A stretch of DNA of 64,000 bases from an uncultured Hyphomicrobiales bacterium. Its GTDB lineage: Bacteria > Pseudomonadota > Alphaproteobacteria > Rhizobiales > Beijerinckiaceae. Below, one piece after another: positions 3,457-35,473 of this stretch. The notes below the pieces were generated by a model that was given only the letters and a program-made list of their open reading frames with translations, was not told the DNA's origin and searched no databases. How positions within the stretch are numbered: position 1 is the first letter of the stretch; every line of letters begins with the position of its first letter. The position numbers and the translations under genes were made by a program. The DNA is taken from NCBI GenBank assembly GCA_903861645.1, contig CAIOVE010000066.1, positions 62,001 through 126,000 on the forward strand, read 5' to 3'.

Positions 3457-4404
3457 CTACCCCACCAAACCCCACGTTCCCCTGGCGAAGATGTCCTCGA
3501 CGGACACCTTCTTCGTGATGATGCCCTGCGACAACGCGTGGCCGATGAGCGTCTCGATGACCTTGCGATTGGGCTCGATCCCGTAAGGCAGGGGATCGGC
3601 GGCGCCGGCGGCCATCACCTTCAGGTGGATGTTGTCGGCGGCGTCCAGCGTCTCGATCTTGCCGGCCTTCAAGGCCTCGACATAAAGCCGCTTGGAGGCG
3701 GCGAAGGCGTTGAAGATATCGGCGGCGAGATCGGGGTGCTTTTCCAGCAACTCGTCCTTGATGACGACGAGGTGGTTGATGGGATAATGGCCGTCACGCT
3801 TGAACGCGGCGAGGCCCGCGTCGAGCGCGTTGGGGATCAGCGGCGCGACGTCGGGGTGCTTCACGTCGACGCCGATGGCGCCGGCGAGCTCGCCCGAGAT
3901 CAGCATGTCCTCCATCTTCTTGCCCGCCTCTATGGGCGTGACGTTCGACGGCGCGACATATTCGGCGACATGCTCGTCGCCCGACAGCACCCAGGTCACC
4001 TTGGAGAGATCGAGACCATATTCGCTCGCCATGATGCCGCGCGCCCAGACGCCCGTCGTCACCGTGTAGCCGCGGTTGACGCCGACGCGCTTGCCTTCGA
4101 GATCCTTGGGAACCTTCACGCCCGCGTTCTTGTTGACGAGGATCGCGCCGTGATGGAACTGGCGCACCAGCGGCACGGGAATCGCGGTCATTTTCTTGCC
4201 GTGCTCGCGGGCGCAAACATAGGTCGTGATCGCCATCTCGCAGATGTCGAACTCGCTTGCGCGCACCATGCGGCGGAACGCGGCGATCAGTGGATCGACC
4301 TCGACGAATTCAAGCTCGCAGGTGGCGGGCTTCACCACGCCTTCCTTGAGGGCGCGATTGTTGCCCTGCGTGCGGGTGACGGTCTTGAATTTCGGCAAGG
4401 ACAT
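3457..4404 (-). CDS. 4,5-dihydroxyphthalate decarboxylase-like protein
   Basis: A 315-residue protein resembling the 4,5-dihydroxyphthalate decarboxylase (Pht5) family, whose members share a periplasmic-binding-protein fold. Supporting segments are ASEFDICEMAITTY early, HHGAILVNKNAGV and LEGKRVGVNRGYTVTTGVWARG in the middle. There is no signal peptide, so a cytoplasmic enzyme is more likely than a transport receptor. No phthalate oxygenase or dehydrogenase is next to it; the nearest aromatic-ring oxygenase is about 33 kb away. It stands alone on the minus strand, facing ParE. Family confidence is good, substrate confidence low. Confidence 0.65.
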   Translation of the reverse strand: MSLPKFKTVTRTQGNNRALKEGVVKPATCELEFVEVDPLIAAFRRMVRASEFDICEMAITTYVCAREHGKKMTAIPVPLVRQFHHGAILVNKNAGVKVPKDLEGKRVGVNRGYTVTTGVWARGIMASEYGLDLSKVTWVLSGDEHVAEYVAPSNVTPIEAGKKMEDMLISGELAGAIGVDVKHPDVAPLIPNALDAGLAAFKRDGHYPINHLVVIKDELLEKHPDLAADIFNAFAASKRLYVEALKAGKIETLDAADNIHLKVMAAGAADPLPYGIEPNRKVIETLIGHALSQGIITKKVSVEDIFARGTWGLVG

Positions 4405-5592: not shown

Positions 5593-5973
5593 TCAGGCGG
5601 CCAGCAACCGCTGCACCTCGTTGACGAGGTCGCGCAGATGGAAGGGCTTCGACAGGATTTTGGCGTCCTTTGGGGCGTTGTTGTCAGGGTTCAGCGCCAC
5701 GGCGGCAAAGCCCGTGATGAACATCACCTTGATGTCGGGATCGAGTTCGGTGGCCCGGCGGGCCAATTCGATGCCATCCATCTCCGGCATGACGATATCG
5801 GTCAGGAGCAGTTCGAAGGGCTCCTCGCGCAGGCGGTTATACGCCGACAGGCCGTTGTCGAAGGAGGCGACGTCATAACCGGCGTTCTGCAAAGCCTTCA
5901 CCAGAAAGCGGCGCATGTCGTTATCGTCTTCCGCCAGAAGGATTTTGGATGACAATGGGGACTCTTCGGTCAT
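5593..5973 (-). CDS. cpdR: Single-domain response regulator CpdR
   Basis: A 126-residue receiver-only response regulator. CpdR in Caulobacter and Sinorhizobium is phosphorylated through the CckA-ChpT relay and, unphosphorylated, directs ClpXP to degrade cell-cycle proteins. Seen here are the acidic pair in LLAEDDND, the phospho-acceptor aspartate in LLTDIVMPEMDG, the T in MFITGF and the invariant lysine in ILSKPF; there is no output domain. I chose ATG 5973 (MTEESPLSS), preceded by a GAGGCGG ribosome site; an in-frame start at 6075 would add 34 residues atypical of the family. It is divergent from the amidohydrolase gene, the usual rhizobial arrangement. Confidence 0.9.
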   Translation of the reverse strand: MTEESPLSSKILLAEDDNDMRRFLVKALQNAGYDVASFDNGLSAYNRLREEPFELLLTDIVMPEMDGIELARRATELDPDIKVMFITGFAAVALNPDNNAPKDAKILSKPFHLRDLVNEVQRLLAA

Positions 5974-6140
5974 TTCCGCCTCGATTCGAGCATACCACGC
6001 CATATGGCTCCGGCGATGGTAAACAACCCGTGAAAATCGGGCTGGAATCGCCGCGCTGTTCATCATTTTCCACAAGTGTGTTCGGTATGGACAGACGCGC
6101 GCGGCAAGGGCACATTGACGCGTCGATTGTTGGAGACCTC

Positions 6141-7079
6141 ATGCGCCTGACCGACGTCTCGTTCAATGCGCCAGCGCCATACGGCGGCGCGACGGGCGTG
6201 CTTGGTTTCACGCCGCCCTTCGAGACGCTCGAACCCGCCGCCCTGACCTCGGCGCTGGTGTTTTCATCGCCACATTCCGGCAGCCAGTATCCGCAAAGCT
6301 TCCTCGATGCGACGCGCCTCGACGCGCTGACCCTGCGACGCTCCGAGGACGCGCATGTCGACGACCTGTTCGCGAGCGCGAGCGATGTCGGCGCCCCGCT
6401 GTTGCGAGCCTGCTTTCCCCGCGCCTATCTCGATCTCAACCGCGAGCCCTACGAACTCGATCCCCGCATGTTCGAGGGGCGGCTCCCGCCTCATGCCAAC
6501 ACGCGTTCCATTCGCGTGGCCGGCGGGCTGGGCACCATCGCCCGCGTCGTCGGCGAGGCGCAGGAGATCTACGCGGCGCGCATGCCCGTCGCCGAGGCGC
6601 TGGAGCGGATCGAACTGCTCTACAAGCCCTATCACGCGATGCTCGGCGGCCTGATGCACCGCGCCGCCGGTCTGTTTGGCCACGCCGTGCTGATTGATTG
6701 CCATTCCATGCCCTCACAGGCCGCGCGCGGCGCCCGGACGGAGGATTACCCCCGCGCCGACATGGTGCTGGGCGACCGCTACGGCGCGAGTTGCGATCCT
6801 TTGCTTGTCTCTGTCGCCGAAAGCGAGTTGCGCCGTCTCGGCTATGCCGTGTTGCGCAACAAGCCCTACGCGGGCGGCTACATCACCGAACACTACGGCT
6901 CGCCATCGTCCGGCTGGCACGCGATCCAGATCGAGATCAATCGCGGGCTCTACATGAATGAAAAAACGCTGGAGCGAGGCCCCGGCTACCAGAAGCTGAA
7001 GGACGATCTCGCCACGCTGGCCAGGTCGCTCGCGTCGGCGGTGGAGATGATTTCGGCCCATCGGGCGGCGGCGGAATAA
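6141..7079 (+). CDS. N-formylglutamate amidohydrolase family protein
   Basis: A 312-residue zinc amidohydrolase of the N-formylglutamate amidohydrolase (HutG-type) family, which releases formate from N-formylglutamate or related N-formyl amino acids. Visible landmarks are VFSSPHSGSQYP near the start, RAYLDLNREPYELD, and LIDCHSMPS with candidate metal ligands. ATG 6141 has TGGAGA upstream; an ATG at 6088 in frame is possible. No histidine-degradation genes are nearby, so a general deformylating role is as likely as a hut role. It sits divergent to cpdR, and the sRNA locus follows, a neighbourhood I recall from Sinorhizobium. Confidence 0.85.
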   Translation: MRLTDVSFNAPAPYGGATGVLGFTPPFETLEPAALTSALVFSSPHSGSQYPQSFLDATRLDALTLRRSEDAHVDDLFASASDVGAPLLRACFPRAYLDLNREPYELDPRMFEGRLPPHANTRSIRVAGGLGTIARVVGEAQEIYAARMPVAEALERIELLYKPYHAMLGGLMHRAAGLFGHAVLIDCHSMPSQAARGARTEDYPRADMVLGDRYGASCDPLLVSVAESELRRLGYAVLRNKPYAGGYITEHYGSPSSGWHAIQIEINRGLYMNEKTLERGPGYQKLKDDLATLARSLASAVEMISAHRAAAE

Positions 7080-7099
7080 ACCGTCGCGAACACGCTCCC

Positions 7100-7192
7100 A
7101 AAAAGAAAGGAGGCCGCTCGTTTGCACAAGCGGCCCCAAGTCAAGGGAGGAAACGCCCTGGAAGGGCGATGCGACCGGCAAAGCCAGTCAGC
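7100..7192 (-). ncRNA. mmgR: MmgR-like (suhB motif, alpha-r8) small RNA, promoter-distal copy
   Basis: Minus-strand sRNA of about 93 nt. Its promoter is TTGCCT (7227-7222), 17-base spacer and CATATA (7204-7199). The 5' part can fold GACTGGC-TTT-GCCGGTC and CGCCC-TTCCA-GGGCG. Then comes the single-stranded segment TTTCCTCCCTTGAC, which I recall as the ultraconserved anti-Shine-Dalgarno element of MmgR RNAs. It ends in a terminator hairpin GGCCGCT/AGCGGCC followed by CCTCCTTTCTTTTT. MmgR controls polyhydroxybutyrate accumulation in Sinorhizobium. The 3' 59 bases are identical to the neighbouring copy. Ends are predicted, not mapped. Confidence 0.78.
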
Positions 7193-7198
7193 GGTTCG

Positions 7199-7227
7199 TA
7201 TATGGACGATCATGCCGGATAAGGCAA
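7199..7227 (-). promoter_or_regulatory. Promoter of the distal MmgR-like sRNA
   Basis: On the minus strand the -35 box is TTGCCT (7227-7222) and the -10 box CATATA (7204-7199), separated by 17 bases. Transcription would begin near 7192. Confidence 0.6.
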
Positions 7228-7305
7228 GGCCGCTGACCGAACATTTTCGTGATATTGGGGTTTTTCTGGCGTCATTCGCGGACGCCACGTTGCTTCCAGG
7301 CCCGG

Positions 7306-7392
7306 AAAAAGAAAGGAGGCCGCTCGTTTGCACAAGCGGCCCCAAGTCAAGGGAGGAAACGCCCAAGGAGGGCATGTGCAGCAGCGCTGCAC
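7306..7392 (-). ncRNA. mmgR: MmgR-like (suhB motif, alpha-r8) small RNA, promoter-proximal copy
   Basis: Minus-strand sRNA of about 87 nt with a strong promoter, TTGACA (7428-7423), 18-base spacer, CATATT (7404-7399). The 5' end folds into GTGCAGC-GCT-GCTGCAC and then GCCC-TCCTT-GGGC. It carries the same unpaired TTTCCTCCCTTGAC segment and the same GGCCGCT/AGCGGCC terminator with a T tract ending at 7306. The 59 bases 7306-7364 repeat 7100-7158 exactly, whereas the 5' hairpins differ in sequence. The gene is in the converging intergenic region between the amidohydrolase and MFS genes. Confidence 0.8.
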
Positions 7393-7398
7393 CGCAAC

Positions 7399-7428
7399 AA
7401 TATGCTACCGCACCGCACAAAATGTCAA
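7399..7428 (-). promoter_or_regulatory. Promoter of the proximal MmgR-like sRNA
   Basis: Perfect -35 TTGACA (7428-7423) and -10 CATATT (7404-7399) on the minus strand, spacer 18 bases, predicted start near 7392. Confidence 0.7.
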
Positions 7429-7494
7429 GCGGGTTTGTGAATTATTTTCGCGCGCCGCGTCAGGATTGACCGCGCTTCCACGAACCATCTGAAA

Positions 7495-8757
7495 TCAAAT
7501 GTTTTTCAATGGATGCGGGTCAACGGCCCGCATGTAGAGCAAGGCCGCGATCGCCATCTCGATGGCCAGCACCGCGAAAACAGCCTGATAGCCGGTGGCT
7601 GAATAGACGCGCGCGCCATCCTGGATTCGCACGCCAAACGCCTCGATCACCAGACCGGTCAGGGTCTGCTGGAAAAAGACGCCGCCCATGTTGCCGATGT
7701 TGAGCAGGGTAAGCCCGCGACCCATTAGCTCGGGCGGGAACAGCGACCGCCCATGGGCGGTCAGCACGGGCGTTACGGCGAAAAACAGGGCGTAAACGAC
7801 CAGAAAGGGCGTCAGCCACGGGCCCGATGGCGGCGCCAGCGCGGCGATGGCCAGCATGCCAACGCCACCGCACACGCCGATCAGACCGGGAATCCGATAG
7901 CCCCGGAACAGGCGATCCGCGCCGCCCCAGATGAACAGCCCGATGACCTGGGCCAGAACCATGGCGAAAAGCACGCCGCCACGCTGGTCGAGCCCCATGC
8001 CATGGATTTGAGCAAGCCACGGGCCGCCCCACAGGCCGACGACGGTGACGAAGCCGGAATAGGTCGTCGCCTGCATCAGGAACACCGGCCAGAACGAGCG
8101 CACCCGCGCCGCGGCCGCGACCCCGCGGACGAGATCGCCCAGCGTTTCGCGCCGTTCGGCCCGGACCCGACGGGAATCGGCGTCCTCGCGCACCAGCAGG
8201 ACGACCAGTAGCGTCAACAGGGCGCACAACGCGCCAACCGCCATGAACGAGGCGCGCCAGCCAAAGCGCGCGCTCGCCGCCGCCAGCGGCGCCGTCGCGG
8301 CGAGCGAGCCCAACGTGCCCGCCCCCATCTGCACGCCGGTCATGGTGGCGAATGTCTCGGGCGGGAATCGTCGCGCGTAGATCGCCAGCGCGCCCATGAA
8401 GAAACTCGAACATCCCGCGCCGATGAGCAGTCGCGCCCCGACCAGCGTCGCGAAATCCCGCGCCAGTCCGAAGAGAACGGCGCCCGCCACCACCAGAACA
8501 GCCGTGCCCACGATCGCCGCCTTGGGGCCAAGCCGGTCAATGGCCATGCCGACGGGAATCTGCATCAGGGCGAAGGACAAATAGAAAATCGCGCCCAGCA
8601 AGCCGAGCGCCGAGGCGTCGAGATCGAATTCCCGCGCGATATCCGGTCCGATCACGCCAATCGCGTTGCGGAAAAACTGGCTGACCGAATAGATCGCCAC
8701 CAGCGCGGCCACCAGCGCGACGCCCGCGAACGCGCCCTTGCCGCCTTCCTGCCTCAA
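7495..8757 (-). CDS. MFS transporter
   Basis: A 420-residue integral inner-membrane protein with about twelve hydrophobic segments. The first has SQFFRNAIGVIGPDI, and the loop between segments 2 and 3 shows the MFS signature in the form PVGMAIDRLGPK (G-x-x-x-D-R-x-G). A cytoplasmic loop with many charged residues (LVREDADSRRVRAERRETLGD) lies in the middle. The substrate is unknown. The gene ends towards the sRNA locus and starts divergently from hisN. In Sinorhizobium, as I recall, the sRNA lies directly between the amidohydrolase and monophosphatase genes, so this carrier may be an addition here. Confidence 0.85.
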   Translation of the reverse strand: MRQEGGKGAFAGVALVAALVAIYSVSQFFRNAIGVIGPDIAREFDLDASALGLLGAIFYLSFALMQIPVGMAIDRLGPKAAIVGTAVLVVAGAVLFGLARDFATLVGARLLIGAGCSSFFMGALAIYARRFPPETFATMTGVQMGAGTLGSLAATAPLAAASARFGWRASFMAVGALCALLTLLVVLLVREDADSRRVRAERRETLGDLVRGVAAAARVRSFWPVFLMQATTYSGFVTVVGLWGGPWLAQIHGMGLDQRGGVLFAMVLAQVIGLFIWGGADRLFRGYRIPGLIGVCGGVGMLAIAALAPPSGPWLTPFLVVYALFFAVTPVLTAHGRSLFPPELMGRGLTLLNIGNMGGVFFQQTLTGLVIEAFGVRIQDGARVYSATGYQAVFAVLAIEMAIAALLYMRAVDPHPLKNI

Positions 8758-34838: not shown

Positions 34839-35040
34839 GATTGAATCCAGCCCCGCGAGCCATCCCGCCGGCACTGTCACTAAAACGCTGGCGTGGCGCC
34901 CGCAAGGCGCGAAAACGGCGGCGCGGCGGCGGCGACGGCCAAGCCACGCCCGGCGCGTGGGGAAAAGTAAGTCGGGGTTCAAAAAACGCTTGCGCGAATC
35001 CAAATTCGGCGTATTGAACGGCCTGCCCAAATCGCACGTG
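34839..35040. other. Intergenic DNA upstream of the odc leader
   Basis: First part of the 635-bp gap between the OpgG/OpgD-like gene and odc. I see no gene. A possible odc promoter is TTGCGC (34990-34995), 16-base spacer, TATTGA (35012-35017). Confidence 0.45.
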
Positions 35041-35473
35041 CCTGTGGTCGTGTGTCGGTTGGCGGGGATCCGGACAAGAGGCCGGTTAACCGTCAGAAAA
35101 AACCGGCAGCCGGAGCGAACCGGCGAACCCCGCCAAACGGGGGACGCGACTTAAAGCAACGACGGACCGGGCTTTTTCGTCTCTGTTGGCCTCCAAAGCC
35201 AACGTACCGAAGAGGCTAGTCTATCTTGCCGGGCGTGCGGACGGGACCTCATCCCTTCCAAACGATGGCCACGACATCCTTGGTCGATGCGTTCACGCAT
35301 CTTCCGGGGCGGACGTGTCCGACGGCGCATCACCCGGTTGGCCTTGCGGCCAGCCATGGATGGCGTTGAAGCCAGCGGATCGCGTCTCCATCGCGCGTTC
35401 GCGGGCCCGACTCCTCCTCCGAAGCCATTTGCTCTGGCGCGGTGAACCCCGCGCCCTTCGAAGGGATGCCGCG
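35041..35473 (+). ncRNA. Long structured leader of ornithine decarboxylase (speF-motif type)
   Basis: A leader of up to about 450 nt with many strong local stems: CCCCG-CCAAA-CGGGG (near 35128), TTGGC/GCCAA (35186-35202), GGGA/TCCC (near 35243) and a perfect GATGCG-TTCA-CGCATC (35286-35301). Alphaproteobacterial ornithine decarboxylases are preceded by the conserved speF RNA motif (Rfam RF00518, from memory), and position and size fit. Exact limits are not determined. It presumably senses polyamine or ornithine state; that is inference. Confidence 0.6.

What the first reader, a model, noticed from the sequence alone, without database searches (positions are those of the whole stretch)
7100..7392. 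Two tandem MmgR-like small RNAs at a conserved cpdR locus
Seen: two minus-strand units, each with promoter, 5' hairpins, an unpaired TTTCCTCCCTTGAC core and an intrinsic terminator. Known, from memory: MmgR (Rfam RF00519, formerly suhB motif, alpha-r8) has an ultraconserved TTTCCTCCCT element, and in Sinorhizobium it lies near cpdR, an N-formylglutamate amidohydrolase and an inositol-monophosphatase gene. All these neighbours are here. A tandem duplication in one intergenic region suggests dosage or division of labour.
Basis: partly seen in the sequence, partly recalled or inferred. Interest (0 to 1): 0.75.

Follow-up and report, generated by a model that had tools for sequence, protein, structure and literature searches.

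The report
Tandem MmgR small RNAs, split promoters
The bacterium carries two neighbouring copies of MmgR, a known small regulatory RNA linked to carbon storage; the copies have almost the same RNA body but different promoters, only one of which carries a likely binding site for PhaR, the regulator that senses stored carbon.

Summary
Both minus-strand units match Rfam RF00519 (mmgR/suhB/alpha-r8) well above cut-off (66.9 and 59.9 bits; cut-off 41). They form an 86-nt direct repeat with 206-nt spacing between an N-formylglutamate amidohydrolase (FGase) gene and an MFS gene, with cpdR and an inositol-monophosphatase (IMPase) gene nearby. The family, its FGase linkage and adjacent copies in some genera are already in print, so the tandem itself is no discovery. 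Comparison adds something. Among same-genus tandem pairs, the copy distal to FGase has a PhaR (AniA) box in 14 of 15 promoters, the proximal copy in 0 of 16. FGase/IMPase-linked loci with one core have a box in 28 of 28. Terminators resemble each other within a genome more than between genomes; promoters of the two copies do not. In a GTDB scan exactly one copy is boxed in 28 of 33 tandem pairs; 22 of these, mostly Hyphomicrobium-type, have the boxed copy on the other side. Best reading: one antisense RNA fed by a PhaR/PHB-responsive promoter and a PhaR-independent one. Expression and binding are untested; target prediction was inconclusive.

The parts
7303..7391 (-). Distal (upstream) alpha-r8/MmgR sRNA gene, about 86 nt
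   Evidence: RF00519 66.9 bits; fold z -5.0; 5' end inferred from promoter position
7097..7186 (-). Proximal (downstream) alpha-r8/MmgR sRNA gene, about 87 nt
   Evidence: RF00519 59.9 bits; fold z -3.3; 5' end inferred
7346..7359 (-). Core TTTCCTCCCTTGAC (anti-Shine-Dalgarno seed), distal copy
7140..7153 (-). Core TTTCCTCCCTTGAC (anti-Shine-Dalgarno seed), proximal copy
7306..7343 (-). Intrinsic terminator, distal copy
7100..7137 (-). Intrinsic terminator, proximal copy
7399..7428 (-). Promoter of distal copy: TTGACA 7428-7423, CATATT 7404-7399
7409..7417 (-). PhaR (AniA) box TGCGGTGCG inside the -35/-10 spacer of the distal promoter; matches YGCRNYGCR
   Evidence: consensus from PMC12542648 (passages)
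7388..7396 (-). Second PhaR-like box TGCGGTGCA near the inferred start site of the distal copy
7199..7228 (-). Promoter of proximal copy: CTTGCC 7228-7223, CCATAT 7205-7200, no PhaR box (best match has 2 mismatches)
5949..7079 (+). N-formylglutamate amidohydrolase gene (open frame; the start may be further in), convergent with the sRNAs
   Evidence: PF05013 E 1.7e-74
5593..6075 (-). cpdR-like response regulator gene (open frame; the start may be further in)
   Evidence: PF00072; 93-99% identical to the corresponding protein in the 15 same-genus FGase-locus tandem stretches of relatives
7495..8757 (-). MFS transporter gene upstream of the sRNA pair; found in 4 of the 15 relatives' tandem stretches
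   Evidence: PF07690
8738..9646 (+). Inositol monophosphatase (suhB-like) gene
   Evidence: PF00459

Best explanation
Two tandem alpha-r8 (MmgR) small RNA genes with a common body and different inputs. Each is transcribed from its own promoter and ends at its own intrinsic terminator (promoters and terminators seen in sequence; transcription inferred). Both RNAs present the same UUUCCUCCCUUGAC seed, which pairs with Shine-Dalgarno regions and represses translation with Hfq (inferred from SisA and MmgR in other species; an hfq gene is present here). The distal copy carries a PhaR box between -35 and -10, much as Sinorhizobium mmgR does, so it should be repressed by free PhaR and released when PHB granules titrate PhaR (inferred). 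The proximal copy lacks the box and should supply the same RNA regardless of PHB state (inferred). The RNA bodies look homogenised within genomes (concerted evolution), while the promoters stay distinct.
For: RF00519 hits. Box in 14 of 15 distal and 0 of 16 proximal copies; shuffle means 0.15 and 0.22. Box in 28 of 28 FGase/IMPase-linked loci with a single core, so the boxed promoter is the common, probably ancestral state. Terminator identity of the two copies of a genome 0.924 against 0.829 (distal-distal) and 0.814 (proximal-proximal) between genomes, 0 of 10000 permutations as high; promoter identity 0.510 against 0.655 and 0.550, 9932 of 10000 permutations as high. The same homogenisation between linked and dispersed copies in 9 genomes: terminator 0.936 within against 0.848 between, 3 of 10000. 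The genome has phaR, three phasin genes, phaC and hfq, with TGC-N3-GCA dyads upstream of phaR, of the C56 phasin and of the first C75 phasin. In S. meliloti PhaR binds the mmgR promoter in EMSA at a site with TTGTGCACCGC, and mmgR is overproduced when PhaR is depleted (PMC12542648, passages). Exactly one copy boxed in 28 of 33 tandem pairs of a GTDB scan.
Against: No expression or binding data. The core PhaR consensus is loose: 111 matches in the 64-kb window, which by density would give about 0.07 per promoter scanned, about 1 in 15, a harder control than the shuffles; the case rests on conserved position. With one mismatch allowed 4 of 16 proximal copies match, near the shuffle mean of 3.2. 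One distal copy (G021) has no exact box. In 4 of 33 GTDB pairs both copies are boxed. Of 14 unlinked copies 8 are boxed. Regulation of the proximal promoter by something else is not excluded. Predicted pairing with PHB genes is not conserved for phaA and only modestly above background for phaB; phasins are unremarkable. Homogenisation could partly reflect recent duplication rather than gene conversion; the 5' arm shows no excess between the two tandem copies (4894 of 10000).
Confidence: 0.68

Rival explanations
1. Simple dosage: the second copy only raises the amount of MmgR, and the promoter differences are neutral drift after duplication.
For: Bodies are identical over 59 nt in the window. 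Tandem against single needs at least 5 changes across 32 same-genus rows of the gene tree, so the second copy is readily gained or lost.
Against: Boxes stay at one position (-58 to -65 from the core) in 14 of 15 distal copies and are absent from all 16 proximal ones; a CTTG...CATAT-like element persists in 13 of 16 proximal promoters.
Confidence: 0.2
2. The proximal copy is not an independent gene but part of a longer transcript from the distal or MFS promoter, processed or partially terminated.
For: Both units lie on the MFS strand, downstream of it; the strict promoter scan finds no proximal promoter.
Against: A terminator ends the distal unit; a sigma-70-like element precedes 13 of 16 proximal copies; MFS was found in only 4 of the 15 relatives' tandem stretches, some of which are cut by contig ends.
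Confidence: 0.08
3. The two siblings differ in target choice through their different 5' ends rather than in regulation.
For: The 5' arms differ (0.65 identity in the window) while core and terminator agree.
Against: The pairing region shown for the family is the shared 10-mer (PMC12559287, section 7); no target was traced to the 5' arm here.
Confidence: 0.1

Closest known systems
MmgR of Sinorhizobium meliloti (alpha-r8, RF00519)
   Same: Rfam family with core, terminator and 5' hairpin; PhaR-type site in the promoter, as in the distal copy here (PMC12542648, passages).
   Different: Single copy in S. meliloti (PMC12559287); here two in tandem, one without the box
SisA-SisD of Caulobacter crescentus (alpha-R8 siblings, sponged by CrfA)
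   Same: Same family; siblings with a shared 10-mer and unrelated promoters; sisA lies downstream of FGase (PMC12559287, sections)
   Different: Dispersed loci there, tandem here; no CrfA-like sponge was identified here (only a pattern search was tried)
AbcR1/AbcR2 (alpha-r15)
   Same: Tandem sRNAs in one intergenic region with anti-SD motifs, partial homology to suhB (PMC7143759, passages)
   Different: Another family and locus; 114-120 nt
OmrA/OmrB of E. coli
   Same: Tandem siblings sharing the pairing region (as described in PMC12559287)
   Different: Unrelated RNA; both under OmpR, whereas here the promoters differ

Membership tests
RF00519 mmgR/suhB (alpha-r8) | Covariance-model score above gathering cut-off | tested here: met
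   66.9 and 59.9 bits against 41
RF00519 mmgR/suhB (alpha-r8) | Single-stranded 10-mer UUUCCUCCCU after a weak hairpin | tested here: met
   Sequence and predicted fold: unpaired but for its first U in the distal centroid; in the proximal centroid touched by a weak 2-pair helix
RF00519 mmgR/suhB (alpha-r8) | Rho-independent terminator | tested here: met
   12-pair stem plus U-rich tail, both copies
RF00519 mmgR/suhB (alpha-r8) | Linkage to FGase gene | tested here: met
   FGase (PF05013) ends at 7079, 17 bases before the proximal RF00519 match; FGase and CpdR found beside 15 of 15 same-genus FGase-locus tandem pairs of relatives
RF00519 mmgR/suhB (alpha-r8) | Transcription as a roughly 77-nt Hfq-bound RNA | not testable with these tools
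   hfq gene present; no transcript data
PhaR-controlled promoter | YGCRNYGCR palindrome in the promoter | tested here: met
   Met by the distal copy; not met by the proximal copy
PhaR-controlled promoter | PhaR binding and repression | not testable with these tools
   Shown for mmgR in S. meliloti (PMC12542648, passages)
Direct repressor of PHB genes | Conserved seed pairing at start sites | tested here: inconclusive
   In the window's genome 4 and 5 of 57 window genes pair as well as or better than phaA and phaB; across relatives the mean longest match is 5.3 for phaA (n 27) and 6.5 for phaB (n 29) against 5.0 background; for the three phasins 23, 14 and 47 of 57 window genes do as well or better

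The most novel reading that the evidence does not exclude
Tandem alpha-r8 pairs are a recurrent two-input device: one RNA product, kept uniform by gene conversion, fed by one PhaR/PHB-sensing promoter and one PhaR-blind promoter. It would have arisen at least twice, with the boxed copy distal to FGase in the window's group and proximal to it in the Hyphomicrobium-type loci.
Probability: 0.4. Interest if true: 0.55.

Novelty: new member of a known kind. Interest (0 to 1): 0.34.

Why it matters
Why bacteria keep several near-identical sibling small RNAs is an open question. A tandem pair in which the RNA stays the same and mainly the promoter differs makes it directly testable: delete or swap one promoter and measure PHB and the RNA. 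It also would link the PHB sensor PhaR to only one of two siblings. The family and the tandem habit are already known, so the step is modest.

Tried and rejected
Target search: strong seed matches just before an ATG (17 in the genome against 1 in the reversed-pattern control) mostly look like strong Shine-Dalgarno sites. phaA and phaB looked promising in the window's genome, but phaA complementarity is not conserved (27 loci, the window's included: mean longest match 5.3, at least 7 in 4) and phaB only modestly raised (29 loci: mean 6.5, at least 7 in 12; background mean 5.0, at least 7 in 8 of 57); not claimed. The 57 background genes were called by a rough script that favours start sites with strong SD sequences, and the window's own core was used for all genomes.

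Sponge search: a perfect complement of a 16-base core stretch occurs only opposite the two sRNA genes; the next best have 2 mismatches. No CrfA-like RNA was identified, but an imperfect sponge would escape this search.

RNAalifold on 31 bodies aligned the variable terminators poorly; the 9 pairs it gave show no double change, so no covariation is claimed beyond the Rfam model.

Third copy: C80:8755-8824, 30.1 bits, below cut-off and, by eye, without the 5' hairpin; left as a lead.

Papers not held: Lagares 2016 on alpha-r8 phylogeny, Lagares 2017 and Ceizel Borella 2018 are known only through citing papers. So the statement that the PhaR-box split is not in print rests only on search listings 6, 12, 13, 35, 57, 58 of open papers and the passages read.

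Rows dropped: the G015 distal copy (cut by the contig end) and the other-genus pairs G037 and G054 are outside the distal/proximal counts; in those two the box is on the proximal copy. One search leaves G015 out of the identity test. G059's unlinked pair (L058) has no exact core and was not used. In one search only the first of two dispersed copies of G029 was used. The 28 'single-core' loci were picked by exact core within the stretch; where a contig ends nearby (for example L059, L070) a second copy could be hidden.

Full report
What is there. The intergenic region 7080-7494 holds two minus-strand units. Both match RF00519 over the whole 77-position model, at 66.9 and 59.9 bits against a gathering score of 41. 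They are copies of each other: an 86-nt direct repeat, 87% identical, 206 nt apart, with 59 identical nt (7100-7158, 7306-7364). Each ends in a 12-pair terminator with a U-rich tail and contains TTTCCTCCCTTGAC. Both fold better than shuffles (z -5.0 and -3.3). In the window's genome these are the only two matches over the cut-off; a third candidate on contig C80 scores 30.1 bits.

Neighbourhood. Pfam identifies a response regulator (cpdR), FGase, MFS and inositol monophosphatase genes. Of 61 genomes (own included), 49 have an RF00519 match over the cut-off; of 14 control genomes 1 does. Counting matches within 500 nt on one contig in that table, 16 of 37 same-genus genomes (own included; G015 by a cut-off partial match) and 3 of 24 others of the order have tandem pairs. 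Sixty stretches, chosen from these matches, were fetched. In the 15 same-genus FGase-locus tandem pairs of relatives, FGase and CpdR lie beside the pair in 15 of 15, IMPase in 13 of 15 (the other two are cut by contig ends) and MFS in 4 of 15. The tool's 'same genus' label should be read loosely: in these 15 the FGase proteins are only 59-73% identical to the window's. Seven of these contigs match, by length and sequence, records titled Roseiarcaceae, Beijerinckiaceae, Rhizobiales or Hyphomicrobiales.

Promoters. I call the copy further from FGase 'distal' (7306-7391) and the other 'proximal'. The distal promoter has TTGACA, an 18-nt spacer and CATATT, with TGCGGTGCG in the spacer. This fits the core YGCRNYGCR of the PhaR motif of S. 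meliloti. There PhaR bound the mmgR promoter efficiently in EMSA; the listed site is CAATTGTGCACCGCAGCATTA (PMC12542648, passages). The B. diazoefficiens consensus is TGCRNYGCASMA (PMC6201568, passages); on the plus strand the window box reads CGCACCGCACAA, which differs from it in the first base. Scanning -80 to -38 from the core, exact boxes occur in 14 of 15 complete distal copies (each with one at -58 to -65) and 0 of 16 proximal copies; shuffles give 0.15 and 0.22. With one mismatch, 15 of 15 distal but 4 of 16 proximal match, the latter near the shuffle mean of 3.2. The core consensus is common: 111 in the window, or about 0.07 per promoter scanned, so about one chance box would be expected in either set of promoters. 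The longer form TTGTGCNNNGC(A/G) occurs 3 times in the window, one of them in the distal promoter. The 28 FGase- or IMPase-linked loci with a single core all have a box (16 of 16 same genus, 12 of 12 others); the scan range also takes in the position near the start site, and by eye some rows (G004, G035) have only that one. Of 14 unlinked copies 8 have a box. So the boxed promoter looks ancestral and the unboxed proximal copy derived (inference). In the window's genome, TGC-N3-GCA dyads precede phaR, the C56 phasin and the first C75 phasin.

Wider scan. One pattern scan of the GTDB species collection, limited to exact motifs and to spacings of about 175-235 nt, found 33 tandem stretches. Exactly one copy is boxed in 28, both in 4 (L142, L147, L160, L163), none in 1 (L136, whose upstream copy is cut by the contig end; it is G015). 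Seven of the 33 are contigs already in the set above, and they include all six pairs in which only the upstream (distal) copy is boxed. In the other 26, only the FGase-proximal copy is boxed in 22 and both in 4. Of these 22, 12 are titled Hyphomicrobium and 3 Filomicrobium or Hyphomicrobiaceae. The order is the reverse of the window's, which suggests at least two origins; the rows are related and are not independent events. Three of the 33 loci hold three copies.

Concerted bodies. For 15 genomes, terminator identity between the two copies of one genome is 0.924, against 0.829 distal-distal and 0.814 proximal-proximal between genomes (0 of 10000 permuted pairings as high). For promoters it is 0.510 against 0.655 and 0.550 (9932 of 10000 as high). 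The 5' arm shows no excess (4894 of 10000). By rank, a genome's own proximal terminator is closer to its distal one than any other distal one in 4 of 15 and tied in 7. Linked and dispersed copies of 9 genomes agree: terminator 0.936 within against 0.848 between (3 of 10000); 5' arm 0.715 against 0.673 (279 of 10000); promoter 0.534 against 0.514 (557 of 10000). Gene conversion is the simplest cause; repeated recent duplication is less likely because distal promoters resemble each other across genomes. On a gene tree of 38 loci, tandem against single needs at least 5 changes among the 32 same-genus rows, so the extra copy is gained and lost; 9 of 35 inner branches are open and only 14 are well supported.

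Function. The published model is post-transcriptional repression by the 10-mer through anti-SD pairing with Hfq (SisA, PMC12559287, sections 7, 9 and the first part of 12). In S. meliloti an mmgR mutant stores more PHB, and its phasin proteins rise without a change in their mRNAs (PMC8401924, passages). hfq, phaR, phaC and three phasin genes are present in the window's genome. My own target predictions were inconclusive.

Known versus new. Several copies per genome were noted in 2005, then as not tied to particular neighbouring genes (PMC1273637, passages). Linkage of the usual single copy to FGase, adjacent copies in some genera, and Caulobacter siblings with unrelated promoters are stated in 2025, citing earlier phylogeny (PMC12559287). 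The positional split of PhaR boxes within tandem pairs did not appear in my searches, but the 2016 phylogeny paper is not held.

Noticed in passing
window 35025-35319: Rfam ar45 sRNA (68.3 bits) directly followed by a speF leader (40.1 bits) on the plus strand, 7 nt apart.
   Followed up: no
L092 8755-8824 (own genome contig C80): A third, degenerate alpha-r8-like copy (30.1 bits, below cut-off) with TTTCCTCCCGCGACTTGG and a terminator-like hairpin but, by eye, no 5' hairpin.
   Followed up: partly
window 7079-7365: The simple scan found no plus-strand terminator after FGase, so read-through FGase mRNA would be perfectly antisense to both sRNAs and could act as a sponge.
   Followed up: no
window 4404 (start of 3457-4404, minus): The start region of the nearby substrate-binding-protein gene has the strongest predicted pairing with the sRNA core among 57 window genes, -28.0 kcal/mol.
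   Followed up: no
L142, L147, L165: Triple alpha-r8 arrays; in L142 two copies are boxed and the FGase-proximal third is not.
   Followed up: partly
dispersed copies in G005, G028, G033, G034, G002, G027, G032, G036: Dispersed alpha-r8 copies share 0.90 or more of the terminator with the linked copy of the same genome (G029, 0.75, is the exception among nine), which points to homogenisation across distant loci.
   Followed up: yes
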